This document shows, piece after piece, positions 17,875 through 48,586 of a DNA stretch of 51,104 bases (position 1 is its first letter; every line of letters starts with the position of its first letter). Source of the stretch: a virus. Made by a program: the position numbers and the translations under genes. The notes below the pieces were generated by a model. It was not told where the DNA came from. It searched no databases and worked only from the letters and a program-made list of their open reading frames with translations. The stretch lies in the IMG/VR virus record IMGVR_UViG_3300025132_000055, positions 1-51,104 of that record. One strand, given 5' to 3'.

Positions 17875-18798
17875 CTAATAGTTGATTGCTACGAAGTGAT
17901 ATGTGGAGGCGTCTTCACCAGAAAGGCGGTCCCTATATTTCACAGAATACTTAAATGGGTATTCCTTTACAATAAAGTTTTTATAAAGGCCCTCAGTAAA
18001 TTCGTCTTTGTTTAAGATAATCATTGCCTTAGACTGCTTGCTTTTGAACCATTCAAATAATTCAACGTGCTCTTTGTTGCCAAACACATTGTCTGCTGAG
18101 TATTCTTTGAACTGTCTGGTATATGGCGGATCTAGAAAAACAAAATCGTTTTTTGTAGAAGTTGATACTGTTTTTTGCCAAGTTTGGTTATGAAAAGTAG
18201 TATTATCAAATAAAACTTGCAAATCTTCAGACCATTCAAGCTTTTTAAACGTTTTGTAGTAACCATAAGGAACATTAAACTTCCCTTGACTGTTAAAGCG
18301 TAGCATACCCCCGTACGACAAACACCTAAGTATATAAAAACGCTTAGCCAAATCATATTCGGAAGTATGGTTGCCATCCCTCCAGTGATAATATAACTTG
18401 CCAGCTTCACCGAACTGTTCTCTGGCTGCTTTTCTTAAGATCTTTAATTGGCTTTCTCTCTCAGGGCTTTCCTGTTCAAGAAGCTTGGCATCAATTAGTT
18501 TCTTGTATTTGTCATCAACATTGTCTGTGATTTTCTTTTTATATGTATCTGAGAAATTATTAACATCCTTGACGAAACCATCCCCATGCTTACCTATAGT
18601 CTTATAAAACATGATAACTTCATCAAAAAAATCACCTACAACGCTTTTATTGGGCGCTAATCCTAGCCAGACTGCTCCTCCTCCTAAAAAGGGCTCATAA
18701 AAAGTGTCATATTGTTTTGGTGCTAGCTCCTCCACATGGTGGAATTCTTTTCTTTTTCCACCAGACCACTTAAAAAACGGTTTATTTTTAGCTGTCAT
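17875..18798 (-). CDS. dam: D12-class (Dam-like) DNA adenine N6-methyltransferase
   Basis: 307 aa. FFKWSGGKRKEF (residues 8-19) and EPFLGGGAVW (35-44) form the AdoMet-binding motifs X and I; DPPY at 223-226 is the catalytic motif IV. This order (X-I-target region-IV) is the alpha-type D12 class that includes Dam and M.DpnII. It probably methylates adenine in a short palindrome, possibly GATC, though the target cannot be read from the sequence. It overlaps by 11 bases the end of a PD-(D/E)xK-like gene at 18788..19498, so the two may be a restriction-modification pair. Confidence 0.9.
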   Translation of the reverse strand: MTAKNKPFFKWSGGKRKEFHHVEELAPKQYDTFYEPFLGGGAVWLGLAPNKSVVGDFFDEVIMFYKTIGKHGDGFVKDVNNFSDTYKKKITDNVDDKYKKLIDAKLLEQESPERESQLKILRKAAREQFGEAGKLYYHWRDGNHTSEYDLAKRFYILRCLSYGGMLRFNSQGKFNVPYGYYKTFKKLEWSEDLQVLFDNTTFHNQTWQKTVSTSTKNDFVFLDPPYTRQFKEYSADNVFGNKEHVELFEWFKSKQSKAMIILNKDEFTEGLYKNFIVKEYPFKYSVKYRDRLSGEDASTYHFVAINY

Positions 18799-19498
18799 TG
18801 TTACCTCCTAATAGTTGCTTTGCATGTGATAAAAATGATCTAATATTGCCTTGTTTGGCTTTTTTTCTACCTTTATCAACAAGTTTTTTGCTAATTCCAA
18901 TTGTATCACAATAATCTGCGCCTGTGCAGATGCTTTCTCTGTTGGTTGTTGTTTTAACTGAACTGTTTGCCAAATTGTCACAATTCCACAAAACAAATTT
19001 AGTCTCTATTCTATAGGTGTTTCCAAAGCGATTTCGCATGTAGTTTAGACACTTTAATAAACTCTCCATTTCTCCTTGAGATTTTTTTGTATCAAATCCA
19101 TTCCCATCTTTTAGCTCAACAATATAAATCGTGTTCCCAATCCTCGCTAAGCCATCAATAGATATCGCTTTCTTGCCTTTTAAGATAATATTATATTTTT
19201 CTAAATCCTCAATTTTGAATTTGAATCTTTTAATGTAGAAATCGCCGGGCTTGCTGAAATTAAATTCATCAGTGCTGGATTTGTCATAATAAGCGAATTT
19301 ATTAGAGTTCTCCACAACAGATGCAATTGTATCTTCCAACTGATTGCCCATTGAGATTTTAGTTGCATGAAAAGCGGTCATTAGTTTGCACACGCTCTCA
19401 CTAAGTTCAGGATCGTCTTCACACCAGAAAGCGCTGGTGTAGGAACTCTGCTTTTCCTTGTTGTGCTCCAATCTTTGGTCAAATATTGATTTTTTCAT
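18788..19498 (-). CDS. Putative type II restriction-endonuclease-like protein
   Basis: 236 aa. ISIDGLARIGNTIYIVELKD (about residues 112-131) fits a PD-(D/E)xK nuclease core: Asp115, then Glu128-Leu-Lys130. It is followed by FDTKKSQGEMESLLKCLNYM, a helix common in restriction endonucleases. An N-terminal helical region and a basic C-terminal part (KKLVDKGRKKAKQG) flank the core. The start is the ATG behind GGAGGTAGTT. Direct overlap with the adenine methylase supports a restriction-modification role; a DNA-repair or host-DNA-degrading nuclease is the alternative. Not matched to a named family. Confidence 0.65.
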   Translation of the reverse strand: MKKSIFDQRLEHNKEKQSSYTSAFWCEDDPELSESVCKLMTAFHATKISMGNQLEDTIASVVENSNKFAYYDKSSTDEFNFSKPGDFYIKRFKFKIEDLEKYNIILKGKKAISIDGLARIGNTIYIVELKDGNGFDTKKSQGEMESLLKCLNYMRNRFGNTYRIETKFVLWNCDNLANSSVKTTTNRESICTGADYCDTIGISKKLVDKGRKKAKQGNIRSFLSHAKQLLGGNNDS

Positions 19499-19521
19499 AA
19501 CTACCTCCGTGTCATGTATAT

Positions 19522-19549
19522 AATATAACATGTTTTAGATATTTGTCAA
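19522..19549 (-). promoter_or_regulatory. sigma70-type promoter for the REase-like/methylase pair
   Basis: Minus strand: -35 TTGACA (19544..19549), 16-base spacer, -10 TATATT (19522..19527), about 23 bases before the ATG at 19498. No palindrome. Confidence 0.78.
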
Positions 19550-20152: not shown

Positions 20153-23100
20153 TTAGCCCAACAAAAACCAATTATTATTCAAAGCACCGTATGTACTGAA
20201 GCCCCAATCTGCACTGTACTTGGGTTTTAGCATGTATGGTCTGTTGATGTGCAGCTTATCCTTGTCAGGCTTGATAGACCAGCAGCGAATCTTGGTCAAT
20301 ACAGAGTTGGAATCAATCACCTCAACAACATAGAAGTTGCGACCATTCTTTGACTTTTTGAGGGTCACAGAGCGTGGAATACACCAACAATAGCCTAAAT
20401 CATAATCATATTCGGATATTGGAGGAGCCACCCACTCATCAATCCTTGCCTGCACGTCTTGGGTAATGACTTTGGACATGGGAAATATACCTGTTAGATC
20501 GGTCAGGAATGTGATTTTCTCTTCTTCAGTGAATGAACCTTCAGGATGGTATGCCTCGATGTTCTCAAGCAGATTTTTAAGCCGTTTTGGGCGATCTACG
20601 CACACTGCTGACCAGAAGTGCTTATCTCCTGAGAAGCGGTCATCAATAAGGTGGCGAAGGGCTCCCGCTCTGCACAGTACATCCAGAGCCTTCTTATTGA
20701 GTTTGGAATAAACAATGTTCTCATTAAAGATAAAGTCTTCAACGGTCTGGAATGGACGGTTGTTAAGAATCTGCTCGATGGCTTTCGCACCCAACCCTTT
20801 AATAGTGGTTAGAGGTGCAACAAGGGTGTTTTTATCGAGGATCTCCCAGTACATACCAGAGGTATTTACATCTACGTCTTTGATTTTGAATCCGTGTTGT
20901 TTAGCAAGGTTAATCGCCTTTTCTTTACGGGTTTCCGGCTCACGTTCAAGGAAGGCTGCTGTCCATTCTGCCGGGAAATAATTACAAAGCCAAGCGCACT
21001 GATAGCTGATAATAGAATAAGAAACGGCATGAGACTTATTAAAGCCATAGCCAGAAAAGTATTCAAAAGTTGTCCAAAGAGCGTTTGCTTGTTTCTCCGA
21101 AATCCGTTTAGCTCTACACCCTCGGACGAATTTGTCTCGTATCCGTTCTTTAACCTCACTTCCCTTACCTGTTCCCTTCTTAGTAAGTAGTTTTCTAAGT
21201 AGGTTTCCCTCGTCTAGGGTGAGATTGTCACCTAGTTTGTGGGCCAACATGGCAATCTGCTCTTGGAAAATTAAGAATCCATGAGTCTCCTCAGTAATTT
21301 CACGAACAGTTTTGTTCAGGTATTTTACAGAGCTTGGGTCTTCTTTAGCACTAACATAAGATTTATCAACGCCAGCAGAGAGAGGGCCGGGACGATAGAT
21401 AGATGTGATAGCAGAAATATCAATAATAGATCTAGGCTTTGCATTTTGCGCAAATTTCTGAGCACCTTGCTCTGCGAACTGGAATATGCCAACCCACTTA
21501 CCATCATGAAAAATATTCTTATATACATTTTGATCATGTAGGTCTAACACATCTGGGTGTAGGTGGGTATCGTAGTACTTCTTAATGTCTGCGAAGGAAG
21601 GATTGCTAACGCCATGATGTCTGCGAAGAATAGAGCCGATGCAGTCCTCAATCATGCGAAGCGTTGACAAACCAAGTAAGTCAAACTTGATGAAACCCAT
21701 AGGCTCAAGATGGCGCACGTTCTGGCCTTCTGACCATGGAGTTTGTCGAACTCCCTTACTAGCAATAAGCGGCATGTACTTATCTAAGTCTTCTCCAATA
21801 ACCACGCCACCAGCATGACGAGAGACCTGCCGGACTTGACCCACAAGGCCAACAACGTGTTCCTTGATCTTTGGATACTTAACGAAAAACTTTTGCAGTG
21901 ATTCACTGTACTCGATAACTTCCTCAAAGGTAGGAGTATACACACCAGCCTTGATGCCGTGCTTAGCTTTGGCTAAGGGTGTTGCTTCGAATAGCATCTT
22001 GTTGGTCACACCATTGACTTCCATGAAAGGAACATCATAAAATTTACTGATGTCTTTTATCAGGCTCTTCAGTTGAAGTGTGCTAAAGTTAGAGATGGGG
22101 ACAACAACATTGTCACCCCACTCTTCAATAAGCTTCTCTTTTAATGCCATAGGTTCAGATACATCGTAATCAATATCAGGATAATCAGTCGCATCCGCCC
22201 GTAAAAATCGGGAGAAAAGAAGGTTATAACGAATTGGATCCACTTGAGTAATGCCAAGAGCATAAGCAACAAGAGAGCCAGCCGCAGAGCCTCGACCGGG
22301 CCCAGAGATTTGTATTTCATTGGTCTTATCCGCAATAGATTTCATTGTGAGGAAATACTTGGAAAACCCACGATCCGCTATTACCTTGAGTTCATGGTCA
22401 AGGCGGGCTTCGTACTCCAAAATGGTTTTATTCTTACGATGTTTAGTTTTCTTATCAAAACTAGACGGGTGGTTAAGTTTTAGCAAGGAAAACAAACCTT
22501 CCGATGCTATTCGCCTAAGATAATCGTCGGCAGTATATCCAGCAGGAACCACAAAGTCAGGTAAACGAACGGTATCATCAGGATAAAATCCTTCAATGCG
22601 ATCAAAAGCAATACGGTGAGATTCTTCGATGCTTTGTAGAATGAGGTCGTCGTCATATTGTGCTCCGGCTTCTTTCGAGTATTTAAGGTAAGACTCCCAC
22701 ATTTGGTCGCCGTTCTTTGGATAAAGTTCATATTCTAATTCCTGTACTGATGTTGGTAGATTCATATCAAGCCACTCAGGCTTACCCCTACCAAGCCAGC
22801 CAAGTCTTTTATATAGTTCTCTGTCGGTCCAAGCGACAGGTGTTGGATAATGAGAATCGCATGTAGAAACTAGCTTAATACCTGTCTCTTGAGCGATTTT
22901 AATAATGTACTGATTGAGTTCGTGTTGTTCAGGGACTCCGTTCCATTGGAGTTCTCCATACCATCTGTCTCCGAGAATCTCAACCATTCTTCTTGTTGTT
23001 TCCCGCATAGCTTGTAATACAGCTTCCTCACCTTCTTCACGGTGAGCCCAGTAATTACCAGCATATACACCGCCAAGACAAGCGGAAAGGCAAATAACGC

Positions 23101-23617
23101 CGCTAGAATATTTGTTAAGTAATGCATAATCAATCCTTGGTTTGCGATAAAAGTAATCTCCGTTATACGATTCGGAAACCATCCTATAAATATTGTTAAG
23201 GCCTTCTTGATTCATTGCGAGAAGCACAAGATGTCTGGAACGGTTCAGTGCAGTGCCCTTGCTTTTGCTAGCACCTTCTGCCTCGATGTTTGTACCAGTT
23301 CTTTCATTTGATATAGTACGAGCTTTTTTCTTATCTGCTCTGTGCTCTTCATAAGTCCTGCGCCATTCTTCAATGTCTTCAATGAAGTAAGCCTCTACAC
23401 CATAAATAGGTTTGAAATCCTTACCTTCCTTCTTCATCCTCTTGGCGTGAAGAACTTGATACGATGTACCGTTCATGTTGCCATGATCTGTGAGCGCAAG
23501 AGCTTCAGAGCCATTCTTGTATGCGAATTCCATATGATCCTGCGGGAATCCAAAACCATCAAATGGTGATCCAACGCCTGAATGGGCATGAAGCCCAACA
23601 AATTTAATGTTACTCAT
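20153..23617 (-). CDS. dnaE: DNA polymerase III alpha subunit (DnaE type)
   Basis: 1154 aa, full DnaE length. N-terminal PHP domain: GLHAHSG (His10, His12), LTDHGNMNG (44-52), CLSACLGG. The polymerase active site is intact: GPGRGSAAGSLVAYALGIT (439-457), PDIDYD (480-485) with the first two catalytic Asp, and FIKFDLLGL (about 642-650) with the third. RHAGGVVIG, YRPGPL and GFNKSHAVSYSIISYQ are further family C motifs; a C-terminal OB-like region follows. No DnaQ-type exonuclease is inserted, so proofreading would need the PHP site or a host subunit. Start chosen at the ATG behind GGAGGTTACT. Probably the replicative polymerase, though a short family A enzyme is also encoded (41399..42592). Confidence 0.95.
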   Translation of the reverse strand: MSNIKFVGLHAHSGVGSPFDGFGFPQDHMEFAYKNGSEALALTDHGNMNGTSYQVLHAKRMKKEGKDFKPIYGVEAYFIEDIEEWRRTYEEHRADKKKARTISNERTGTNIEAEGASKSKGTALNRSRHLVLLAMNQEGLNNIYRMVSESYNGDYFYRKPRIDYALLNKYSSGVICLSACLGGVYAGNYWAHREEGEEAVLQAMRETTRRMVEILGDRWYGELQWNGVPEQHELNQYIIKIAQETGIKLVSTCDSHYPTPVAWTDRELYKRLGWLGRGKPEWLDMNLPTSVQELEYELYPKNGDQMWESYLKYSKEAGAQYDDDLILQSIEESHRIAFDRIEGFYPDDTVRLPDFVVPAGYTADDYLRRIASEGLFSLLKLNHPSSFDKKTKHRKNKTILEYEARLDHELKVIADRGFSKYFLTMKSIADKTNEIQISGPGRGSAAGSLVAYALGITQVDPIRYNLLFSRFLRADATDYPDIDYDVSEPMALKEKLIEEWGDNVVVPISNFSTLQLKSLIKDISKFYDVPFMEVNGVTNKMLFEATPLAKAKHGIKAGVYTPTFEEVIEYSESLQKFFVKYPKIKEHVVGLVGQVRQVSRHAGGVVIGEDLDKYMPLIASKGVRQTPWSEGQNVRHLEPMGFIKFDLLGLSTLRMIEDCIGSILRRHHGVSNPSFADIKKYYDTHLHPDVLDLHDQNVYKNIFHDGKWVGIFQFAEQGAQKFAQNAKPRSIIDISAITSIYRPGPLSAGVDKSYVSAKEDPSSVKYLNKTVREITEETHGFLIFQEQIAMLAHKLGDNLTLDEGNLLRKLLTKKGTGKGSEVKERIRDKFVRGCRAKRISEKQANALWTTFEYFSGYGFNKSHAVSYSIISYQCAWLCNYFPAEWTAAFLEREPETRKEKAINLAKQHGFKIKDVDVNTSGMYWEILDKNTLVAPLTTIKGLGAKAIEQILNNRPFQTVEDFIFNENIVYSKLNKKALDVLCRAGALRHLIDDRFSGDKHFWSAVCVDRPKRLKNLLENIEAYHPEGSFTEEEKITFLTDLTGIFPMSKVITQDVQARIDEWVAPPISEYDYDLGYCWCIPRSVTLKKSKNGRNFYVVEVIDSNSVLTKIRCWSIKPDKDKLHINRPYMLKPKYSADWGFSTYGALNNNWFLLG

Positions 23618-23650
23618 AGTAACCTCCGTGTTTTTCATTGTGATGTATAA

Positions 23651-36119: not shown

Positions 36120-37199
36120 TTATGTTTTATATTTATCAACCATAACTTCATTTAACAAATCAATAACAGCGTTTCTAAAATCTTCTTGTTTTAGTTTATC
36201 TTTCCACTGCTTTGATTGAAATTTCAAGGGTTTTCCCTCTTTTGGTGTAATGGTATACCAAGCACCAGCAACGCTAAAATTCGGGGATTTCGAACGCTTT
36301 AGAATCTCTAGCCAAGACTCTTCGTCTTGGATACCAATCTCAGAACCCCACATGATTTTGAATTCGCAATCACGACCTTCAGAACCAAAGCGAGATTTTT
36401 TAATCAAGCATCTAACTTGAGATCCAACCCTTACCCCATCTTCATCGATAGCGAAGGAAGCTTTCGACTTTCTCTTTGTAAGCCAGATACGGAGAGAAGA
36501 GAAATATTCGATTGCCTTGCCGCCCGGAGCCATAAATGGTTCAACAAGAGCCATCATTGGGTTTGAAGAAATATTAGTCTTCAATTGGTTGATAAGAATA
36601 AGTGTTGATTCGGTATTGGCGAGGGGGATTGTAAGTTTTGGGAATGCTTTTGAAAAGATACGAGGTTTAACAGCCATTGACGACTGAGGATTAAAATCAC
36701 CTTCTAAGTCCTTTTCTGAGGGCGTTGCGGCCACTGAGTCCCAAATAAATAGAACACGTGCTCCTGAATATTCATTCATGATGTATTCCATTGTATTTAA
36801 TACGTTTTCAACACTTATGGCTTGCTGATAGAGCATTTGGTCTTTAATGCAACCTGCTCTTTCTAAGAACAAAGGGTCAATAGCTGACTCTGAGTCGAAA
36901 TAAACAACAAACATGCCTTTCTTCTGGGCATTCGCTGCTATCTGTGCTGCCATGAAAGATTTACCTGAGCCAGACAAGCCAGCTAACTCAGTAATCTTAC
37001 CGACAGGGATTCCTGCTTCATTACCGGGATTGATAATCAAGTCTAACCATTTAGATCCGGTGGGAATCCAATCCTTTACGGATACCGGATCTGATTTCGA
37101 AAGATCATGGGCAACTTCAATACCCATCTTTTTATTGATCTTTTTTGCTAATTCTGATACGTTAATTTTACCAGTTTTCATTTTTAATACTTGCCCCAC
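36120..37199 (-). CDS. uvsX: RecA/UvsX-type recombinase (GTG start)
   Basis: 359 aa. Walker A GLSGSGKS (74-81), FDSESAID (RecA-type catalytic Glu), LFIWDSVAATP (Walker B), TLILINQLKTN and MAPGGKAIEYFSSLRIWL. It forms a filament on ssDNA for strand exchange, double-strand-break repair and recombination-dependent replication. Starts at GTG with AAGGAG 5 bases upstream. The neighbours are a GHKL ATPase and gp32-like protein, i.e. the standard T4-type recombination set with an unusual addition. UvsX versus RecA cannot be settled by eye. Confidence 0.93.
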   Translation of the reverse strand: MGQVLKMKTGKINVSELAKKINKKMGIEVAHDLSKSDPVSVKDWIPTGSKWLDLIINPGNEAGIPVGKITELAGLSGSGKSFMAAQIAANAQKKGMFVVYFDSESAIDPLFLERAGCIKDQMLYQQAISVENVLNTMEYIMNEYSGARVLFIWDSVAATPSEKDLEGDFNPQSSMAVKPRIFSKAFPKLTIPLANTESTLILINQLKTNISSNPMMALVEPFMAPGGKAIEYFSSLRIWLTKRKSKASFAIDEDGVRVGSQVRCLIKKSRFGSEGRDCEFKIMWGSEIGIQDEESWLEILKRSKSPNFSVAGAWYTITPKEGKPLKFQSKQWKDKLKQEDFRNAVIDLLNEVMVDKYKT

Positions 37200-37213
37200 G
37201 GTTACTCCTTTTT

Positions 37214-38737
37214 TTAAGATCTATCAATTTTAGATGTTGCCTTTATCAGCTTTCTATTGAAGCTGTCTCTAAAATCAACCAAATCACACCCATCGGCACT
37301 GTCTGGTTGAATAAATATTGAAAGTGCATATGGCAATAGCCATCCTGTAACAGCATTTTTTGTCTCAACTGAGGACTGTAGCCAAAACTTAGATATGTAT
37401 CTATGGTCTGTGTTCAGGCTCAATATATATCTTGATTCTTCTTTATTGGGGTTGGCATTCAATTTAAATGGTTCAGATAATTGCCCCAGAGATATTTCTT
37501 GCACGATATAGCTAGGTATTTTTAGCTCAGGCAAATTTGTGGTTGGTAGTTTTATTACTTCTCCAATTTCAATCTCCCCTTTGTCATTAGTCTCAACATC
37601 TATTTCCAATGAAGGGGTATTTTGGAGCCCTTCAGCTAATTTTGCCATCGTATCGAGGTGCTTTTCGGTGTCAACGTCGGTTGACATAATACTAGTTTTA
37701 TTGTGTATTTGTCTCGCTTTTGACATTACGATCTCTTGTATTTTATCTTGCATACTTTGAGTTATAGAAATATCTGATTTATCAAAAGTTACACCAAAAT
37801 ATTTATCGTCATCAGCATCAAAGTATACTGCCCACCTACAATATCTGTAATTTGGATGTTTTTGCCATGTCTTAGACCAGTCGTCATTATTACAAATTCT
37901 GCTTTTTATTACTCTGTCGCATCGAAAAACATAACCGCCCTGATTTTTATCAAATTGTTTTGCGGCAGCGACTGGGACATTCGTAAGATCCACCACTCTA
38001 ATTCTAGAATTGGTGCCGGGGATTATTTCATCGACCTCTTTAATAGTATTTTTGTTATACCAGCATAATGGATCAATAGAGGGGACTACATTGCCATTAA
38101 TTGTTATTTGTAACTTAGAATTAATAATCTTTTCACAATAAACTTGCGAACAATATTTCTCTATATTTCTTTCAATATTATCTCGCCTCGTACTGAAATT
38201 TTCTAGATCGAATTTAGATAACACAATTATTGTACCAGTGGACTTTGTTCCGAGAGTTTCATTAAACATGTCAGTCATCTCTGGTGTAACTTGAACTTCT
38301 GATGTACCCCATTGGTCATTTATACGCACCTGATTTATATCATATTGTCTGGCTAACAAAACGCCGGACGCATCTCTGGTCACAGTTAGCTTGTGGGCTG
38401 CAATGTTTAGACTGCCTAATGTGCCCCCTAAGCCAAACTTACCAATCTCAGTAGATTTTCTATTTCTTTCAAATCCTAGCGTATACGAGCCATACAGTTT
38501 ATCTTTATTCATCCCGCTGCCGTCATCGGCAATAATAATTGATGTTATTTCTTTGGAAGGCCCGGTAGTCATAATCTGAATTTTTGTCGCATTTGCGTCA
38601 TCAGAATTATCAATCAAGTCACCAATTGTGGTGACTAATTTATACCTGCCTCTTCGTAGAGATTCTATAAATTTATATCCAATTTTTCCTGCTTCGAAGG
38701 AAGCCTTTATCTTTTTTGCATTATTCGCAATAGCCAT
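37214..38737 (-). CDS. GHKL-family ATPase (MutL/Hsp90/MORC-like)
   Basis: 507 aa. N box GDLIDNSDDANA (Asn44; position of the catalytic Glu is Asp40), G1 box IADDGSGM (69-76), G2 box GKFGLGGTLGSLNIAA (99-114). These define the Bergerat-fold ATPase of MutL, Hsp90, MORC and histidine kinases. The extended N box with D-A-N-A-T is closest to MORC/MutL-type. The C-terminal 300 residues (with DKSDISITQSMQDKIQEIV) are unassigned; no histidine-kinase H box is seen. It lies between the recombinase and the ssDNA-binding protein, hence probably acts on DNA or on recombination complexes. E-to-D in the N box may slow ATP hydrolysis. Confidence 0.82.
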   Translation of the reverse strand: MAIANNAKKIKASFEAGKIGYKFIESLRRGRYKLVTTIGDLIDNSDDANATKIQIMTTGPSKEITSIIIADDGSGMNKDKLYGSYTLGFERNRKSTEIGKFGLGGTLGSLNIAAHKLTVTRDASGVLLARQYDINQVRINDQWGTSEVQVTPEMTDMFNETLGTKSTGTIIVLSKFDLENFSTRRDNIERNIEKYCSQVYCEKIINSKLQITINGNVVPSIDPLCWYNKNTIKEVDEIIPGTNSRIRVVDLTNVPVAAAKQFDKNQGGYVFRCDRVIKSRICNNDDWSKTWQKHPNYRYCRWAVYFDADDDKYFGVTFDKSDISITQSMQDKIQEIVMSKARQIHNKTSIMSTDVDTEKHLDTMAKLAEGLQNTPSLEIDVETNDKGEIEIGEVIKLPTTNLPELKIPSYIVQEISLGQLSEPFKLNANPNKEESRYILSLNTDHRYISKFWLQSSVETKNAVTGWLLPYALSIFIQPDSADGCDLVDFRDSFNRKLIKATSKIDRS

Positions 38738-38833
38738 ATTTAATCCTTTTAGTTAAAACTATTTAAATTCCAAATCGTTTAAGATCTGAAAAAAGAAATT
38801 TTCTTTTTTATTATTTCCAATCTTCTAAAGACC

Positions 38834-38874
38834 AAAAAAAAGGTGCCCTACTTACTTAGAAGCGCCGGGACACC
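38834..38874 (-). terminator. Rho-independent terminator after the ssDNA-binding gene, with alternative hairpin
   Basis: Minus strand: GGTGTCCC (38867..38874) pairs with GGGCACC (38842..38848), one bulge, followed by eight T. A second hairpin, AGCGCC/GGCGCT (38877..38882 with 38861..38866), encloses the 5' arm of the terminator stem and cannot form at the same time, as in an attenuator. The 156 bases between the two genes otherwise hold nothing recognisable. Confidence 0.75.
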
Positions 38875-38895
38875 AAGGCGCTCAACCCAAACCTA

Positions 38896-39654
38896 CTAGT
38901 CTTGATTCATGAAGCTCTTTAGAGCATCATCAACAGCGCCCAGCTTATTATATTTCTCTGTCTCAGACGAGGCATTTTCGGAGGTAACATCGGAGGATAA
39001 ATACTCATCCAGTAAAGCTTGTACATCGGAGGTTGTTTGGCGCTGGAAGAGTGTTCCTATGTCTGGAACAGAGTTAATTAATTCATCACAATTTTCCACA
39101 TCTTCACATAACTCAGATGGGCGGCGACGAGGCTTAAGGGATGTCTTTGGGAATGATCCCGGGGTTCCGGGAATGTTATATGTCATAACGATATCTGTAC
39201 CAGTCTCTGGGTGTGTAATATCGCCATAGTCAGGGTCAAGAACATAAGATAGTAGGGTTTCATAGGCAGTCTTACCGTATGCCCAAACTCTTACGCCTTT
39301 TGATTCCTCTCCACGAACAATAATTGGAGAGTAGTAGCGTTTGCGTGCAAATAGTTTTTTGGCTTCACGCTTAGCTGTGTCGTCGTTATTCTCAACGCCT
39401 TCACGCCATAGTTTGCTAGCAAAGTCACAGATAGGACAGTCTTCACCATGGTTGCGCTTAGGACAAAGAATACCGGGGTTCTTGCCCACGTTATAATGGA
39501 AATGGAACTCTTTGAAAGGGTCACCATCCACTGTGGGAAGGATTCTAACAGTTTGGTCGCCTTCAGATGGGCGCCACTTTGTGTTATCTTGTTTTTTTCC
39601 GCCGTTGCGGGATTGTTCGAGCTTAGCTCTCATTGCTTCTATATTAATAGCCAT
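38896..39654 (-). CDS. Single-stranded DNA-binding protein, gp32-like
   Basis: 252 aa. N-terminal MAINIEAMRAKLEQS, then WRPSEGDQTVRILPTVDGDP (OB-fold start), the zinc motif CPKRNHGEDCPICD, aromatic strands RKRYYSPIIV and GVRVWAYGKTAYETLL, and an acidic C-terminus. This is the T4 gp32 layout (about 300 aa) with a zinc-binding loop. It coats ssDNA at the fork and interacts with UvsX and helicase. Followed by a strong terminator and preceded by a stem-loop in the leader. Confidence 0.9.
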   Translation of the reverse strand: MAINIEAMRAKLEQSRNGGKKQDNTKWRPSEGDQTVRILPTVDGDPFKEFHFHYNVGKNPGILCPKRNHGEDCPICDFASKLWREGVENNDDTAKREAKKLFARKRYYSPIIVRGEESKGVRVWAYGKTAYETLLSYVLDPDYGDITHPETGTDIVMTYNIPGTPGSFPKTSLKPRRRPSELCEDVENCDELINSVPDIGTLFQRQTTSDVQALLDEYLSSDVTSENASSETEKYNKLGAVDDALKSFMNQD

Positions 39655-40589: not shown

Positions 40590-41411
40590 TTACCTCCAAG
40601 GTTGAATATGGTGTGTATATTTAAGAGAATAGAAAAACGATTGCTTATGCTCAGAAGAAAAGATTGAGAATGAAGAAGTCATGTTATTGCTTTCATCATT
40701 GTGTATTCGTTTCTTGATTGTGTTCAACAAGTTTTTATCCTTCTCTAGTTTTTGTTTGCTTATACTATAAATATAACTTGTTTCAGTGCAGTTGTCAAGT
40801 AAAAACATTAACTTTTCTTGATCTTTATCGAAATTGCCAACTGAGATGGTGTTTATCCTTGAAATTTCTTTTGGTTTATGTGTGCCACCTAGAACTGGTG
40901 TTTGATCCTTGAACCACAGAATGGTTTCAACTGTATTTGCTATTTGTTTATTAATTGCACTATACATCATGGTAATTGATTGATCACCAACAATACTCAA
41001 GATATCCTTATTAGAAAAGATAGACATACTGTGTATAAGGCCAGATCTTGCGTATTCCTGTAGGACATTAGACACTATTTTGTGTCGCTTGACAACTTGG
41101 GGTGATGCCCATTCTAAATCCGGGTATATGTAACCAATATTTATTTTTTTACTCTTCAAGGTCTCCAGTATTCTTAATGTTGCCGATGAACATAAGGAAC
41201 CTCCACAAACAAAAAACCAACATTCATCAAACTCTAGATTCTCAAATTTGGAATTTCTGCCTCGAAAAAAATTCGGACAATTTGACTCATACGATTCTTC
41301 GTCTGTACATTTCTTTGGGAAATCACTTTGTTTGATATAAACCTTTTTATATGATGATGAAAACTCTTTTGCAATGCCGCAGCCTGCTGTACCTAACCCT
41401 ATGATAACCAT
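40590..41411 (-). CDS. Divergent FtsZ/tubulin-like protein
   Basis: 273 aa. The start, MVIIGLGTAGCGIAKEF, fits the N-terminal GxGGxGxN region of FtsZ. Residues 66-80, FFVCGGSLCSSATLR, lie where FtsZ has FITAGMGGGTGTGAAP; the G-box is degenerate (CGGSLCSSA). IYPDLEWASPQVVKRH and IFSNKDILSIVGDQSITMMYSAIN follow like FtsZ TKPFxFEG and IxNDKLLxxxG...AFxxAN. At 273 residues it is shorter than FtsZ (about 380) or PhuZ (about 315) and may lack the C-terminal domain. It could form filaments that position phage DNA, or be a non-polymerising relative. Next to the family A polymerase; contains an internal promoter. Confidence 0.65.
   Translation of the reverse strand: MVIIGLGTAGCGIAKEFSSSYKKVYIKQSDFPKKCTDEESYESNCPNFFRGRNSKFENLEFDECWFFVCGGSLCSSATLRILETLKSKKINIGYIYPDLEWASPQVVKRHKIVSNVLQEYARSGLIHSMSIFSNKDILSIVGDQSITMMYSAINKQIANTVETILWFKDQTPVLGGTHKPKEISRINTISVGNFDKDQEKLMFLLDNCTETSYIYSISKQKLEKDKNLLNTIKKRIHNDESNNMTSSFSIFSSEHKQSFFYSLKYTHHIQPWR
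40770..40798 (-). promoter_or_regulatory. sigma70-type promoter inside the FtsZ-like gene
   Basis: Minus strand: -35 TTGACA (40793..40798), 17-base spacer, -10 TATATT (40770..40775), lying within the coding sequence of 40590..41411. It would give a transcript for 40235..40486 with a leader near 280 bases, in addition to the promoter at 40535..40563. Confidence 0.7.
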
Positions 41412-42592
41412 GATACCTCCTGTAAGTCACGATAGTTTCTTCCGGCTGTTGCGGATGATTTAAACCAGCCGAGATCAGTGTCCTCGAATATCTCTTGGAC
41501 ACTTGGTAGTATATGCCTATCTTCAAAAGCCAAATCGATTGTTAATGAATCATGAACAACGGAATGCACAAAAGACTTACGGTTCTTCATAAACTTATAA
41601 ATCTTCACAGCCTGCTTCATGCAGTTGTCTGATGATGTGCTCTGGAGAAGGTAGTTAAGTGCATGAAAGTCGTTAGCTTCAATCTTGCGACCAAATGGTG
41701 TGTGAATGAAACCATCTTTATAATATTTATTTAATAATAGTCTGCGATCGTAATAATCTGATTTGATTGCATCAGAGTTTGGATTGTAGAACCAAGCCAG
41801 AAACTTCTTCTTGGCAACAGTGCGATCTGTTACATTATCGAAGATGTTTTCCATGTTCCATAAATGAATATCTGCTTTTGGGTGCGTTCCGGTTGATAAT
41901 GAGATAAAGGTTCTAATCTCCGCACCATTTAAGTCGAATTGGACAAAGATGTCATTTTTTGGCACCACACAGTTGGCGATTTCCTTCTTGAGGTTCATGA
42001 TAGGGAAGGAGCCCTTCTCAGTTGTGAGGCGACCCGTTTTTGAACCCCATATATCATAGCAGATTGGCTTATTTTTGCCGTTTAAGAAGTTGAGCAGTAC
42101 GTTTGCCTTGTTATCATGTTTGGCGTGTTTTTTGAGCACTTCTTGGTCGATAATGACAGGTATTTGCTTTATGCCATGGGCCATAACTTTTAAATCAACC
42201 ATAAAACCATGATTCTGTGGTTTGTGATAACTATCGAAAACGTATTGACAGATTTCGTTTTTAACTTCGCAATAGTGCATTAGGTGCTGCTCGGGAATAA
42301 CGTCGAACAAGCAATGTTCTTTCATATTTATCTTGGCGATGAACGCAGACTTAACAAATGATTTTATTTTTGATTCTCTTTTTTCGAGTCTTGATCGGAG
42401 ATTCTCTGGAGCGACATCAGCAAGGGTCTTGCCAGCAGAATAAATGCTAGCATAATCAACATTGCGATTAGCAAGCCTGTGGTCCCAGTTCCATGTTCCC
42501 CAAATATTGTCCGGGATTCTGTCGTATGTAAATTTTCCGTCACCGTAGATTCCAAAGCACTCATTCCTATCATCTAAAATCTGAAATATCAT
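41399..42592 (-). CDS. Short family A DNA polymerase (polymerase domain only)
   Basis: 397 aa. SKTGRLTTEKGSFPIMNLKK (TGRLSSxxPNLQ motif), motif A FVQFDLNGAEIRTFISLS with the catalytic Asp, motif B RTVAKKKFLAWFYNP (Arg, Lys and Tyr kept, Phe762 of Pol I replaced by Leu) and motif C SVVHDSLTID, where the usual HDE is HDS. There is no 3'-5' or 5'-3' exonuclease domain. Family A polymerases fill gaps or replicate phage genomes; with a full DnaE present its job is unclear, perhaps primer replacement or repair. Overlaps its upstream virion-gene neighbour by one base. Confidence 0.88.
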   Translation of the reverse strand: MIFQILDDRNECFGIYGDGKFTYDRIPDNIWGTWNWDHRLANRNVDYASIYSAGKTLADVAPENLRSRLEKRESKIKSFVKSAFIAKINMKEHCLFDVIPEQHLMHYCEVKNEICQYVFDSYHKPQNHGFMVDLKVMAHGIKQIPVIIDQEVLKKHAKHDNKANVLLNFLNGKNKPICYDIWGSKTGRLTTEKGSFPIMNLKKEIANCVVPKNDIFVQFDLNGAEIRTFISLSTGTHPKADIHLWNMENIFDNVTDRTVAKKKFLAWFYNPNSDAIKSDYYDRRLLLNKYYKDGFIHTPFGRKIEANDFHALNYLLQSTSSDNCMKQAVKIYKFMKNRKSFVHSVVHDSLTIDLAFEDRHILPSVQEIFEDTDLGWFKSSATAGRNYRDLQEVSWLS

Positions 42593-43909: not shown

Positions 43910-46900
43910 TTATGTTCCGCCTCCTGACGATCCGCCTCCTGTTCCGGCTGGTGCAGGAACTGTTGCCGTTGCTGTATCCTCGATATCGTTGATTATTGAC
44001 AAATCAACTTGTAATAAATATCCGCTGGTTGTATTTGTTGTACAGACAAAAGCCAATTTCGCATCTTCTGTGTAGAAGGCTAGCACCTTGTATGCCGGAC
44101 CTACATCGCTTTGCCCTTTTGATACTCCCAATTTGTCCAGTTCAGCCATCGCCGGCCCAGCATGAATTGCTACCTGCACAGGATATAATTTGTATTTTGA
44201 TTTTGATTGTGCAATACCGTTGGTAGCTGGATTGATGCATCCAACAGGAACTTCGCTTGTTTCTTTTGGTGAAAAATCAACATATGTGTGAGACCGGTCA
44301 ACCGATATCTGACCACTATTGAAAGTAAAGCTCATTGGAATAGCAGTTCCTTTCTGTGGGATGGATGCTTTGGGGGCCGGCGGCTTGTTTTTCTGCTGTT
44401 GGTTCTGCTTTTGTTGCTCGGCTTTCTTTTTATCTAATTCCAGTTGTTTTTGCTGCTTCAGTGCTTGTGCTCTCTTTTTTAACCATGCCGCACCTTTTTT
44501 AATACTTTCCAGTACATTAGGTACGCCTTTCGGTAGGGTTGAATTGCATGCTTGCTTAGGCCCCTTCGGGTTTGGAATTAGGGACGATTTATAATAGTTG
44601 TGTTTTCCGTGTTTACCGGGTAATCCGTAAGAAACCCATGTTGCCTCTATTTCTGTTTTTGAATTAGCGCTGACACCGCCACCATATGAGATGTTGTGAT
44701 TGACGGAAACAATTTGATAATATCCCCCAAGACCCAATACAAATGCCATTGATTTTATATTATTACTGTCTCCGTTTACACCGGCATCAACCCATATCAA
44801 CTGTCCGGGAAAAAGAAAATAAGCAGCTTTTGATAGTGTTATTTTTACACTATATACACCAGAAATCTGCGCTAAGTTACCCATGTTAGATGCGAAGAAT
44901 TTTACCTCTCTTCTGTAGGGAGCATCTTGCTTTGAAAAATCCATCGACTCGATCAATCCGTTTGCGCCGTTATGCATAAATCCGTTTGAGGTAAATTCAG
45001 TTACTTTTTTCTTAAACTTAAATTCAGGAATACCGGCGTCATGTTGAGAATAATTGTTTGTTTTTGCTTGGAATTCATATGATGATGCATTCGCTGGATA
45101 TACAATCAAGTATGAACAATAAGAGCTTCTTTGGATTGAATTCAAACCAAGAGTGCCATCGTCTGGTACCTTTTTAAGTAATGGATATTCTTCTTTGTCG
45201 GCACTATGATAATTAAAAGACAGGCAACCATTATCAATTTTGGTTGTTGCGTTTTTTAATTCGGCATAGTACCTCTCACCTAAGCCGCTTAGATTGCCTT
45301 TTCGATTTGATGCGAACTCTTTGGGATCATTAGAAAATAAACCAATATCAGTCGTAGCTCTAAATAGTGTTTTGTGTTCGGCTCCAACATTGAAACAAAT
45401 ATCACCTAAAATTCTTGTAATAACTGTTTGTGCTAGTGCATTAATAAACCCATTAAGTGAATAATATTGTAGTTTCTTTTCAATAACTTCTTGCCTATAC
45501 CACTCAGAGAACCAATCAAATGAAATAGGGACATCTGCTAAGTTTGTTGTATATGGTTTATATTGCCCTTTCTCAGTGGGCAAATACCACTTAAATGATG
45601 TCAATATAACTTTTAATGGATCCGGATTAAAATAATATCCACCATTTTTACTTTTTCTTAACAACATTTTATCGGCTTCGGTTCTAACTCCCATTTTATC
45701 ATCATCTGATTTTTCGTGAATTCCGTCCATTATGACATCAATTAAATCACCAAAATAGAAAAATTTAATCTTAGTATATTGCAAATCAAAAAGCTTTTCT
45801 TTCTGAGTTATGTTTGCTTTTTTCTTCAATGTGCCGGCATTTTTTCCTAATAGCCAATACTTTGTATAATAATCAGTCACACTCTCCATCACTTTTGTTT
45901 TTTCCGGAAACAAAACCTTTGTAGGATAATATTTTAGATAATTTTTAAATTCTTCTTCTGATTTCGGATGGGAACCTTCAATAATTTTATGTAGTTTAAT
46001 ATAATTGTGAAACCCTTGTGCATGTATTTCCTGATCAATATCAGCTTTTTCTAGAGGATCTAATATTTTCCATGGTTTTGCAATTTTATCATTAGACAAT
46101 GCAAAGCTGCTTCTAACATCTGTGTCTTTCATGCCCACCTGATATATTCTATTAGATTCGGCTAACTTATTAACAATTCTAGAAAGTGTATCTATATTTT
46201 CAGTAGTTGAGACTTGTGCGTTTAATCTTATTTGTTCTCTTATTTCATCTATATCGCACCCTTTCGCTAATTTTTCTTGCACCACCTCTTCTCTATCAAT
46301 TCTATTCTTCATTGTACTCGGCCCTGCCAAGGCATCAATGGAAGGGTCTGTCATGGCGGAGTCAACATATCCACGATAAGACACAGTAATCTCGGCTGCG
46401 TTTGTTTTGGAATCTTTTTTAATTTCATGATCCACAACAGCTATATCCAGAACTAGAGGAGTCTGTCTGAGCATTTTATCAATAAAGGGTCCGTCCTCCG
46501 GCACTGATGTCCCTTTGGTCTCATAATATACATAGCTTTCCAATAACAGGCGGTTATAATCAGGGTGATATTGGCCCCTAAATACACTGGCAAATCCAGT
46601 TGGTTTATTGTTATTAGTATAAGTTAATAAATCTAAAAAACTGTATTTATAAGAATAGGTGTCATCTCCAATTTTAACTCGATCTTTAAAAGTATAATCC
46701 AAATGTGTAATATCGGGTAGATAGAATTTCATCTTAACTTCAACATCAGATTTGGCAGTGGCCATATTTCCACCTTTGAATTCTACCTGAATGGACTTAA
46801 TTAATACAATATTTTCTCTATAGAGAGGGCCATTTTGTATTGATTTTCTTTCGCTTTTGATATAAAGGTTCTTGCCTAATTTGGTGCCGTCTTTTGTATC

Positions 46901-48586
46901 CACTATCTCAGCAAATGAAAAGTTTAGTGGCAGCTTTACTTCATTACCATTATTAACCAATTTACCATCTAAGCCTGTAAAGTTTTTAACGACTTTTGAA
47001 ATTGATACTCTTGTACCAAGATCATTAATAATCATCCCACCAGCATTAATGTATTGGTTAATTCCTGCCTCTTCATAAAACTGCACAGGCGGGAGATTTA
47101 ATGCATTCATTGTATTTTGGTATGGATCGACATTAATTGGAATAATTCTTCCGCCGTATGGAATTGGCAAATTTTCATAATAATTCATTTTATCCATTGC
47201 TTTTCCACCAGCATCTGTGAACGGTCTTATTATTTTGTCACCTTGGGAATTTCTACCTGTTCTTAGGCCGCCTGATAACTTTTGTAACCAAGGCATAGCT
47301 GATAATAAAATACATTGATATACGCTTTTTCTAAATTCCTCCCTCGCTGTTTGAGTACCCGCTCTGGCTGCCTGTTCGTATGGTATTGCTAAACCGGCTA
47401 ATTTCTCTAGCGCTTCATGTTGCTTCTGGTCTTCTTCGATTCTCTTTTTTAATTCTCGTGGCTTATCATCAGAAAAATCCTCAACGAATTCGACAGGCCA
47501 CCAGTCCATTAGATCGTGGAATGCAAACTTAGGGCCGTTGAATCGTGGCGTTACAAATTCAAAGCCCAAATTCTTAAATTCGCTATACAGCTTTTTGTAT
47601 TCAGCATTAATGCCTCCACCCGCAAATGCTTTTACCTCCTCTTGTCCCTGCCCGCCGGAGTATTTAAATTTGTGTCCCCCGAATCTTATAAAATTGGCTA
47701 TTTTAGTAGCTGTGAGTTCATTGGCGCCCCCAAAAAATTCGGCCACCTCATAATTCGGAGATATATTGTCTGAGACGGTTATAGCGAGATACCCACAGCA
47801 AGTCATAATGATTTTGATATAAGTTTGGTATAAGGATGTATATGTATCAGCTTGAAGTGCGGGGTTCCCGGACAACTTTGCAATTAATTCCCCTTCTTTT
47901 GCGTGCTTGCCCAGATCTTTATAATCAGTGAATCTTGTAGATTTCATGATAGTGGCGATAAACGGCCTCCTATTATTCATAGCAGAGAGAGCTTGTTTTA
48001 AGAACTTTTCGTTTTGATGACTGAGCATGTTATATGGGGGGACCCGTCCAAACTGTAAGAATTCTACTATATCCTTGGGTTCCCCGCCACTAAAATAAAG
48101 AACCGAACCCATTCTATAGCCTTTGCCTTTGCCGGGTGCAAACGATGGCGGCATTAGATCACTTGCTTTGTGTTGCGATTGGTTCCTTTTAATTATACCT
48201 ATGGTGCTAGTAACAAATTCTAAAAATGGATTAACAATATTACTAATTGAGAGACCCATGGCACTTAAAACCCAATTAAATAAATCAGCGTATGTTTGTA
48301 ATTCTCCTTTAGCTTTATCACTACCCTTTAGTGCCGATAGGAAACCCATAACTTCACCAGTTGCAGAAGTGTTTATTATATCGCATATTGCATATAAATT
48401 AGCAGCACTTTGTTCTGGATCCGGTTTAATAATATACTGCCTAAGATTATCAACGCCCGTGCCAAACTGATTAATATTAACATTTTGTTTTCTATACCAC
48501 GAAACCAATACGTCAAAATCATTCAAATTGGGATCATTTGTAAGGGGATGTGAGGGCGTATTTGTTGTACCTGATCTATTTGCCAT
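43910..48586 (-). CDS. Giant virion protein (probable tail or baseplate component)
   Basis: 1558 aa, the largest product here. No known domain is recognised with confidence. A globular N-terminal half, several beta-rich segments, then near residues 1375-1420 a Lys/Gln coiled linker (KKRAQALKQQKQLELDKKKA, EQQKQNQQQKNK, PPAPKASIPQKG), a final beta domain and a Gly/Ser tail (PAGTGGGSSGGGT). The tail codons contain AGGAGG, the ribosome-binding site of the next gene. Directly downstream of the LysM gp53-like gene and the tape-measure region, so a baseplate or tail-spike role is likely. Confidence 0.72.
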   Translation of the reverse strand: MANRSGTTNTPSHPLTNDPNLNDFDVLVSWYRKQNVNINQFGTGVDNLRQYIIKPDPEQSAANLYAICDIINTSATGEVMGFLSALKGSDKAKGELQTYADLFNWVLSAMGLSISNIVNPFLEFVTSTIGIIKRNQSQHKASDLMPPSFAPGKGKGYRMGSVLYFSGGEPKDIVEFLQFGRVPPYNMLSHQNEKFLKQALSAMNNRRPFIATIMKSTRFTDYKDLGKHAKEGELIAKLSGNPALQADTYTSLYQTYIKIIMTCCGYLAITVSDNISPNYEVAEFFGGANELTATKIANFIRFGGHKFKYSGGQGQEEVKAFAGGGINAEYKKLYSEFKNLGFEFVTPRFNGPKFAFHDLMDWWPVEFVEDFSDDKPRELKKRIEEDQKQHEALEKLAGLAIPYEQAARAGTQTAREEFRKSVYQCILLSAMPWLQKLSGGLRTGRNSQGDKIIRPFTDAGGKAMDKMNYYENLPIPYGGRIIPINVDPYQNTMNALNLPPVQFYEEAGINQYINAGGMIINDLGTRVSISKVVKNFTGLDGKLVNNGNEVKLPLNFSFAEIVDTKDGTKLGKNLYIKSERKSIQNGPLYRENIVLIKSIQVEFKGGNMATAKSDVEVKMKFYLPDITHLDYTFKDRVKIGDDTYSYKYSFLDLLTYTNNNKPTGFASVFRGQYHPDYNRLLLESYVYYETKGTSVPEDGPFIDKMLRQTPLVLDIAVVDHEIKKDSKTNAAEITVSYRGYVDSAMTDPSIDALAGPSTMKNRIDREEVVQEKLAKGCDIDEIREQIRLNAQVSTTENIDTLSRIVNKLAESNRIYQVGMKDTDVRSSFALSNDKIAKPWKILDPLEKADIDQEIHAQGFHNYIKLHKIIEGSHPKSEEEFKNYLKYYPTKVLFPEKTKVMESVTDYYTKYWLLGKNAGTLKKKANITQKEKLFDLQYTKIKFFYFGDLIDVIMDGIHEKSDDDKMGVRTEADKMLLRKSKNGGYYFNPDPLKVILTSFKWYLPTEKGQYKPYTTNLADVPISFDWFSEWYRQEVIEKKLQYYSLNGFINALAQTVITRILGDICFNVGAEHKTLFRATTDIGLFSNDPKEFASNRKGNLSGLGERYYAELKNATTKIDNGCLSFNYHSADKEEYPLLKKVPDDGTLGLNSIQRSSYCSYLIVYPANASSYEFQAKTNNYSQHDAGIPEFKFKKKVTEFTSNGFMHNGANGLIESMDFSKQDAPYRREVKFFASNMGNLAQISGVYSVKITLSKAAYFLFPGQLIWVDAGVNGDSNNIKSMAFVLGLGGYYQIVSVNHNISYGGGVSANSKTEIEATWVSYGLPGKHGKHNYYKSSLIPNPKGPKQACNSTLPKGVPNVLESIKKGAAWLKKRAQALKQQKQLELDKKKAEQQKQNQQQKNKPPAPKASIPQKGTAIPMSFTFNSGQISVDRSHTYVDFSPKETSEVPVGCINPATNGIAQSKSKYKLYPVQVAIHAGPAMAELDKLGVSKGQSDVGPAYKVLAFYTEDAKLAFVCTTNTTSGYLLQVDLSIINDIEDTATATVPAPAGTGGGSSGGGT

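What the first reader, a model, noticed from the sequence alone, without database searches (positions are those of the whole stretch)
37214..38737. GHKL ATPase (MutL/MORC-type) sitting between the recombinase and ssDNA-binding protein
N, G1 and G2 boxes are clear (LIDNSDDANA, DDGSGM, GKFGLGG). T4-like recombination modules do not usually include such a protein. The catalytic Glu is replaced by Asp40. MORC/MutL family members clamp DNA, and related ATPases occur in anti-phage systems, so this may be a phage DNA-clamp, repair factor or counter-defence factor.
Basis: partly seen in the sequence, partly recalled or inferred. Interest (0 to 1): 0.7.

Follow-up and report, generated by a model that had tools for sequence, protein, structure and literature searches.

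The report
MORC-like ATPase in phage swap slot
A marine phage carries, between its DNA-binding and recombination genes, an ATPase of the kind bacteria use in anti-virus systems, and close relatives of the phage have swapped it for other such genes or left the spot empty, so it looks like exchangeable virus-warfare cargo rather than a recombination part.

Summary
In detail: window 37214-38737 (-) encodes a 507-aa GHKL ATPase between a gp32-like SSB and UvsX. Sequence and predicted fold place it nearest MORC proteins and the MORC/MzaB-type ATPases of bacterial restriction and MZA-like defence operons (HATPase_c_3 5e-18; MORC3 Z 23.9). All ATP-binding motifs are kept. Asp40 is not a lesion: Asp stands there in 60 of 60 R-M-linked relatives.

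It is not part of the recombination machinery. In 112 related viral loci the gp32|uvsX junction is a cargo slot: 66 hold an ORF of at least 100 aa there, while exo|DnaB (7/75) and DnaB|RNR (0/37) are tight. The nearest relative (gp32 96%, UvsX 91%) lacks the gene. Fifteen of 112 slots hold a GHKL protein, of three kinds, and 11 a GmrSD_N/DUF262 protein; the neighbouring UvsX|exo slot has no GHKL. FKBP, thioredoxin and fatty-acid-hydroxylase genes also occur there, so the slot is not purely defensive.

Best reading: an orphan MORC-like ATP-gated DNA clamp serving inter-virus or host-virus conflict. Identity and context are well supported; function is inferred.

The parts
37214..38737 (-). MORC-like GHKL+S5 ATPase gene, 507 aa
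   Evidence: ORF; HATPase_c_3 5e-18; fold nearest MORC3/2/4
38588..38620 (-). N box, residues 40-50 (Asp40 at the general-base position, Asn44 invariant)
38510..38530 (-). G1 box, residues 70-76 (DxGxG)
   Evidence: D71, G73, G75 invariant in 86 rows
38423..38443 (-). G2 box / ATP lid, residues 99-105
   Evidence: G104 invariant, G99 in 85 of 86 rows
37907..37939 (-). S5 segment GGYVFRCDRVI (residues 267-277), aligned with the MORC signature GhXhhpXXRhl; 10 of 11 positions fit
   Evidence: signature from PMC2292703
37778..37780 (-). Lys320, invariant S5 basic residue (proposed ATP-contacting finger)
   Evidence: invariant in 86 rows; role inferred
37217..37522 (-). C-terminal domain (residues 406-507), three strands and three helices, shared with R-M-linked MORCs; weak resemblance to the Hsp90/HtpG C-terminal dimerisation domain
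   Evidence: sequence tests negative
38738..38895 (-). gp32-side boundary of the cargo: homology to the unoccupied locus L065 (88% over 120 nt) runs through the gp32 end and a GC-rich plus T-run block, then stops
   Evidence: block not more stable than shuffles
37200..37213 (-). uvsX-side boundary: the AAGGAG ribosome-binding site and uvsX start resume homology with relatives
38896..39654 (-). gp32-like ssDNA-binding protein (left wall of the slot)
   Evidence: Pfam gp32 1.3e-17; PHROG 1192
36120..37199 (-). UvsX/RecA-like recombinase (right wall of the slot)
   Evidence: PHROG 97 2.9e-61

Best explanation
The gene encodes a stand-alone (orphan) phage member of the MORC/paraMORC radiation of GHKL ATPases, related to the ATPase subunit of bacterial MORC-linked restriction and MZA-like defence operons. 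Shown: the family relation, the intact ATP-binding motifs, the predicted GHKL-S5-helix-CTD architecture, the absence of R-M partner genes in the window, and the rapid turnover of the slot. Inferred: it dimerises on ATP binding and closes on duplex DNA as MORC proteins do, and is expressed with the replication genes. Most likely it acts in virus conflict, by clamping or silencing incoming competitor DNA or by interfering with a host defence, rather than in the phage's own recombination.
For: Family: HATPase_c_3 5e-18; NCBIfam MzaB 3.6e-16 and PADLOC MzaB 3.5e-11 best in their libraries though below the MzaB cut-off; PDB best hits MORC2/3/4 by sequence and fold: MORC3 Z 23.9 (3.2 A, 299 aligned) above Hsp90 21.0, MutL 18.6, topo VI 18.6. 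Relatives in plasmids: 41 records, of which I opened 8; in 7 of 8 a cytosine methyltransferase or other R-M partner lies within the fetched flank (Priestia L007 had none of the tested partners). Motifs: N44, D71, G73, G75, G104, R272, K320 invariant in 86 rows. Cargo slot: 66 of 112 loci occupied at gp32|UvsX against 2/63, 7/75 and 0/37 at polA|p273, exo|DnaB and DnaB|RNR; nearest locus L065 (gp32 96%, UvsX 91%) lacks the gene. Among 11 loci with UvsX at least 85% identical, 5 carry a GHKL of three kinds, 2 a DUF262 gene and 4 neither. GHKL in 15 of 112 gp32|UvsX slots, 0 of 87 UvsX|exo slots. The roughly 600-aa kind and the second GHKL kind match the MORC profile at 95.7 and 94.5% probability, UvsX control 0.1%.
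Against: No activity is shown. The slot also carries metabolic cargo (FKBP 13, thioredoxin 8, fatty acid hydroxylase 5 of 86 occupants), so position alone does not prove conflict. No nuclease, helicase or methyltransferase partner of the R-M type lies in the window, apart from a Dam-like methyltransferase 18 kb away, and a lone MORC has no known effector. The MORC signature is met at only 10 of 11 positions, and a relaxed form of it turns up in 47 of 5000 shuffles of the protein. DNA contact is untested; no part carries a strong positive charge except the 33-residue N terminus (net +7).
Confidence: 0.55

Rival explanations
1. It is a recombination or repair accessory: a MutL/MORC-type clamp that loads or regulates UvsX on gp32-coated DNA.
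For: It lies between gp32 and uvsX on the same strand with only 14 nt before uvsX, and MORC proteins clamp DNA (PMC11879086 passages).
Against: 97 of 112 related loci gave no GHKL there; the nearest relative with 96/91% identical gp32/UvsX lacks it; four records of 185-192 kb have no HATPase match; unrelated genes replace it; isolate Mel-JY01 has an 8-nt gap there.
Confidence: 0.12
2. Counter-defence decoy: the phage protein mixes with, or competes with, the MORC/MzaB ATPase of a host R-M or MZA system and disables it.
For: Homology over nearly the full length including the C-terminal domain to R-M-linked ATPases; orphan state; GHKL and DUF262 occupants both mirror host defence components.
Against: All ATPase motifs are intact, more than a decoy needs; 19-23% identity to the plasmid and other relatives of alignment A1 makes mixed dimers uncertain; the phage copies form their own group apart from R-M-linked ones.
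Confidence: 0.2
3. Host-takeover or lysis-timing ATPase functionally like T4 RIIA or a phage Hsp90.
For: RIIA proteins are known GHKL proteins of large phages (PMC7824862 passages; BFVD hits); the C-terminal domain weakly resembles the HtpG dimerisation domain.
Against: No RIIA-named family among the PHROGs matches; no HSP90 Pfam match; fold closer to MORC than to Hsp90 by about 3 Z units.
Confidence: 0.1
4. Neutral passenger: an R-M fragment caught in a permissive slot, without a present function for the phage.
For: The slot accepts many unrelated genes; the gene's GC (36.2%) is a little below its neighbours' 37-45%.
Against: 507-aa open frame with every motif kept, and relatives at 42% and 31% in the same lineage forming a supported group; three GHKL kinds recur in one slot.
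Confidence: 0.05

Closest known systems
Prokaryotic MORC / paraMORC ATPases of restriction-modification operons (Iyer, Abhiman and Aravind 2008, PMC2292703)
   Same: GHKL plus S5 module, near-match to the MORC S5 signature, C-terminal domain shared with helicase/HNH/EcoRII-N-linked members
   Different: Orphan in a phage replication module; no helicase, nuclease or cytosine methyltransferase partner in the window; strict signature fails at one position
MzaB, ATPase of the MZA (mzaABCDE) anti-phage system
   Same: Best named hit in NCBIfam and PADLOC, aligned over about 300 residues
   Different: 58.6 bits against a cut-off of 850; no R-M/MZA partner genes of the kinds tested in the window
Eukaryotic MORC2/3/4 ATPases
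   Same: Best solved-structure match by sequence and fold
   Different: No CW zinc finger seen; 14-19% identity
VcSduA (GHKL-type Shedu, paraMORC3; PMC12137116)
   Same: GHKL ATPase in anti-phage defence; two other sets of slot occupants (L066 kind, and L179/L202) end in D...ExK-like motifs seen by eye
   Different: The window protein has no nuclease domain that I could find
Antiviral hotspots of P2/P4 (Rousset et al. 2022, PMC9122126)
   Same: A fixed site in a virus genome with interchangeable conflict genes
   Different: There temperate phages and satellites with tested systems; here an uncultivated lineage, slot inside the SSB-recombinase module, mixed with metabolic cargo, nothing tested
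T4 RIIA
   Same: GHKL ATPase in a large tailed phage
   Different: No sequence-family match; other differences recalled, not tested

Membership tests
Prokaryotic MORC family (PMC2292703) | Four GHKL ATP-binding motifs intact | tested here: met
   N44, D71, G73, G75, G104 invariant and T169 in 85 of 86 rows; HATPase_c_3 above cut-off
Prokaryotic MORC family (PMC2292703) | S5 domain with a conserved basic residue | tested here: met
   Fold aligned to MORC3 over model residues 17-351; K320 invariant
Prokaryotic MORC family (PMC2292703) | GhXhhpXXRhl signature in S5 | tested here: not met
   Window GGYVFRCDRVI departs at position h2 (Gly); strict pattern in 53 of 60 R-M-linked, 1 of 6 slot, 2 of 14 other plasmid/viral and 1 of 5 other bacterial rows. 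Hence filed as MORC-like within the wider radiation
Prokaryotic MORC family (PMC2292703) | Linkage to SF2 helicase / nuclease / methylase operon | tested here: not met
   No dcm, vsr, SF2 helicase, Z1, PD-(D/E)XK, AIPR, HNH, EcoRII-N or type II RE homologue among window ORFs at E 1e-3
MzaB (NF041932) | Curated score cut-off 850 bits | tested here: not met
   58.6 bits
MutL | MutL equivalog cut-off (TIGR00585, 180 bits) | tested here: not met
   26.3 bits, N box region only
Histidine kinase | H box / DHp domain before the ATPase domain | tested here: not met
   Only 33 residues precede the HATPase match, with one 8-residue helix; an S5 domain follows
Hsp90 | HSP90 Pfam model (PF00183) | tested here: not met
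   No match at E up to 10 in the window record; 6 of 14 control genomes ring
RIIA | Sequence-family match to phage RIIA | tested here: inconclusive
   No RIIA-named family among PHROGs matches at E 0.1; RIIA folds appear lower in the BFVD list
DNA-clamping MORC function | ATP-gated dimerisation around duplex DNA | not testable with these tools
   Needs protein; MORC2 behaviour read in PMC11879086 passages
Antiviral hotspot | Occupants shown to block other viruses | not testable with these tools
   Occupant families only

The most novel reading that the evidence does not exclude
A phage lineage keeps a dedicated swap slot inside its SSB-recombinase module for GHKL-based immune ATPases (MORC-like, two further GHKL kinds) and DUF262 sensors, and these act alone, without restriction partners, by watching gp32/UvsX-bound DNA and clamping DNA of rival viruses: a virus-borne innate immune locus whose occupants turn over within one phage clade.
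Probability: 0.17. Interest if true: 0.85.

Novelty: new variant of a known kind. Interest (0 to 1): 0.6.

Why it matters
MORC proteins silence genomes in animals and plants and are thought to descend from bacterial restriction systems; a small partner-free viral member would be among the simplest to test for DNA clamping. The slot gives a natural series of closely related phages that differ in one conflict-type gene, which makes it possible to ask directly whether viruses carry MORC-type immune ATPases against each other or against their hosts.

Tried and rejected
A single-protein scan of viral contigs gave no relative (16 stretches matched, none confirmed), which wrongly suggested a singleton; the alignment scan then gave 52 loci. 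Search for an R-M or MZA operon in the window: none of the tested partners. RIIA identity: not supported. Histidine kinase: rejected. Hsp90 membership: Pfam HSP90 gave nothing, while the isolated C-terminal domain resembles the HtpG dimerisation domain only weakly (Foldseek probability 0.95, E 0.035; Z 5.2 over 70 residues; a profile search found no Hsp90); with Z under 8 this is a lead, not a finding. A defence-only slot was rejected: FKBP, thioredoxin and fatty acid hydroxylase are common occupants. A terminator at the left boundary: the block looks terminator-like but folds no better than shuffles (147 of 200 shuffles fold at least as well). No PADLOC match for 9 of 10 further occupants tried.

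Of 205 loci (L013-L217) 112 distinct ones held both gp32 and UvsX. Counts of loci are not independent events. Dropped before counts: duplicate loci, and for the tree the duplicate or partial proteins of L001, L014, L015, L032, L040, L043, L047, L180, L186, L200 and L201; only L218-L239 of the 34 genome loci (L218-L251) entered the tree. The profiles used were built from slot members (and, for A6, other viral rows), so their hits inside the slot are largely by construction; the informative part is the lack of hits in other junctions and the Pfam tallies.

Full report
WHAT IS THERE. The window (a 51,104-base IMG/VR virus record) holds on the minus strand, in order of transcription, a gp32-like SSB (39654-38896), the GHKL ORF (38737-37214), UvsX (37199-36120), a 5'-3' exonuclease, a DnaB-type helicase and a 618-aa protein that I call ribonucleotide reductase (RNR) by recall. 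The GHKL ORF gives Pfam HATPase_c_3 at 5e-18 and just reaches HATPase_c. The phage is only loosely T4-like: its large polymerase is DNA polymerase III alpha, and the best isolate for both flanking proteins is Microcystis phage Mel-JY01 at 33-34% identity.

WHAT FAMILY. In NCBIfam and PADLOC the best name is MzaB, the ATPase of the MZA anti-phage system, at 3.6e-16 and 3.5e-11 but far under the MzaB cut-off. Solved structures found by sequence are MORC2, MORC4 and MORC3, then MutL-type proteins (with a 32-row profile MORC2 2e-16, MutL 7e-9). The AlphaFold model (mean pLDDT 81) aligns to MORC3 at Z 23.9, ahead of Hsp90 (21.0), MutL (18.6) and topoisomerase VI (18.6). Plasmid relatives (41 records) sit in restriction and defence operons with cytosine methyltransferase, Vsr, SF2 helicase, Z1, PD-(D/E)XK, AIPR, HNH or EcoRII-N genes; I opened 8 of the 41 and scored neighbours. 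These are the operon types described for prokaryotic MORCs by Iyer and colleagues (PMC2292703, parts 1-3 of 4 of the text read). Their MORC signature GhXhhpXXRhl is met by the window at 10 of 11 positions (GGYVFRCDRVI), so the strict test fails and I file the protein as MORC-like in the wider MORC/paraMORC radiation. Its C-terminal domain (residues 406-507) is shared with the helicase/HNH/EcoRII-N-linked proteins.

ASP40. In an 86-row alignment Asp occupies this position in 60 of 60 R-M-linked rows, 11 of 14 other plasmid/viral rows, 3 of 6 slot rows, 3 of 5 other bacterial rows and the window. The change from the Glu of MORC2 (E35, needed for hydrolysis, PMC11879086 passages) is thus a trait of the family. 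ATP-binding residues are intact; whether it hydrolyses ATP is unknown.

THE SLOT. A scan with the window's UvsX gave 18 loci, 16 of them at 76-91% identity. In this set the space between gp32 and uvsX is empty or holds quite different genes. Wider scans brought the set to 112 distinct loci with both genes. At gp32|UvsX 66 of 112 loci hold an ORF of at least 100 aa; at UvsX|exo 42 of 87; at p273|gp32 22 of 77; at polA|p273 2 of 63; at exo|DnaB 7 of 75; at DnaB|RNR 0 of 37. So two or three junctions around gp32 and uvsX are permissive and the others are tight. The cargo starts after the block that follows gp32 and ends at the uvsX ribosome-binding site. Isolate Mel-JY01 has the same gene order with an 8-nt gap.

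WHAT FILLS IT. Clusters at BLAST E 1e-5 (111 loci, L041 left out) include: a MORC-like kind (L068, L122, L206, L210, with the more distant L179 and L202; L041 also holds one in a 5.3-kb gap); a second GHKL kind (L066, L117, L127, L160); a roughly 600-aa kind (L072, L078, L126, L188); and 11 GmrSD_N/DUF262-type proteins, two of which I ran against PADLOC and both gave NsnA and PD-T4-2_A matches; Pfam GmrSD_N is reached by 7 occupants at E 1e-3. The second kind and the 600-aa kind were recognised as GHKL by profile comparison with the MORC set, 94.5 and 95.7% probability, against 0.1% for the UvsX control. The 600-aa kind also finds Hsp90 at 9e-4. By eye, the second kind ends in conserved D...ExK residues like a PD-(D/E)XK nuclease; no tool test supports this. 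In all 15 of 112 loci have a GHKL in this slot and none of 87 in UvsX|exo (Fisher p 2e-4, which ignores shared descent). Among the 11 loci with UvsX at least 85% identical to the window, 5 have a GHKL of three kinds, 2 a DUF262 protein and 4 neither. Against a purely defensive slot: of 86 occupants 13 are FKBP, 8 thioredoxin and 5 fatty acid hydroxylase. The UvsX|exo slot has GIY-YIG (7 of 84) and PDDEXK_5 (7 of 84) nucleases, which may drive turnover by homing; that is inference.

TREE AND OTHER PLACES. In a quick maximum-likelihood tree of 86 rows the window joins L013 (support 96), then L122 (99), and these with L016, L068, L206 and L210 form a seven-row phage group (95); the 60 R-M-linked rows lie on one side of a branch (73). 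Several branches are long and the joins of L012 and L041 are flagged as unsafe. L013's copy lies between p273 and gp32; L016's lies beside homologues of the window's p247 and Dam-like methyltransferase p307. So the gene appears to circulate and move within the lineage. Four records of 185-192 kb show no HATPase family match and no match to the MORC profile; that is a lack of match in these records, whose completeness is not stated.

HOW IT MOST LIKELY WORKS. MORC proteins dimerise through the ATP-bound GHKL domains and can trap duplex DNA (PMC11879086 passages). The window protein has the module, a long helix (327-370) and a C-terminal domain that weakly resembles the Hsp90 dimerisation domain, so two dimer contacts and a DNA-sized gate are plausible. 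Expression with the replication genes follows from position only. Given its family, its orphan state and its swap slot, conflict with rival viruses or with host defence is the likeliest role. A GHKL ATPase of the paraMORC3 type (VcSduA) is a proven anti-phage protein whose ATPase residue is essential (PMC12137116, section 12), but that one carries a nuclease.

NOVELTY. GHKL proteins in phages (RIIA; PMC7824862 passages), MORC ATPases in R-M operons (PMC2292703) and antiviral hotspots in P2/P4 (PMC9122126, outline and abstract only) are known. A putative defence system with MORC-linked, MZA-like parts is described in PMC9523054 (section 11 read), and HATPase_c_3 proteins linked to R-M genes in PMC8011034 (passages). 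I did not find in print a MORC-like protein as cargo in a phage SSB-recombinase slot; the searches were made, in an open-access library that lacks most subscription journals and bioRxiv preprints.

Noticed in passing
L065:3535-3744; L069, L073, L074, L076, L077, L089, L094 and others, gaps beside gp32: Tiny acidic lipoprotein-like ORFs (about 28-62 aa, lipobox then DSA/DTA-rich tail) lie beside gp32: 22 of 112 gp32|UvsX gaps and 19 of 77 p273|gp32 gaps, against 1 of 87 UvsX|exo and 2 of 75 exo|DnaB gaps. Small lipoproteins are a known superinfection-exclusion type (recalled); untested here.
   Followed up: partly
window 17875-19531: A Dam/DpnM-like adenine methyltransferase (p307) with an upstream 247-aa partner of unknown kind; in L016 homologues of both lie directly beside a MORC-like gene.
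   Followed up: partly
UvsX|exo gap of related loci, e.g. L013:12831-13814: A second cargo slot with UvdE UV-endonuclease, adenylosuccinate synthetase, GIY-YIG and PDDEXK_5 nucleases, methylases and an MvaI/BcnI-type restriction enzyme.
   Followed up: partly
window 20153-23638 and 41399-42592: A PolIII-alpha-type polymerase and, elsewhere in the window, a 397-aa protein matching only part of DNA polymerase A that is conserved in the lineage: two polymerase types in one phage.
   Followed up: no
window 10962-12527: A phage GroEL (PHROG 5725, 3.5e-146).
   Followed up: no
window 43910-48586: A 1558-aa protein of unknown kind that diverges fast (22-42% in relatives whose UvsX is 76-89% identical).
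   Followed up: no
L151:6996-7892: A slot occupant that matches part of alanyl-tRNA synthetase (6.5e-21), only 298 aa long.
   Followed up: no
L039 (contig of 547,943 bases) and L020 (303,564 bases): Orphan MORC-like genes in very large viral contigs, without the R-M partners tested.
   Followed up: no
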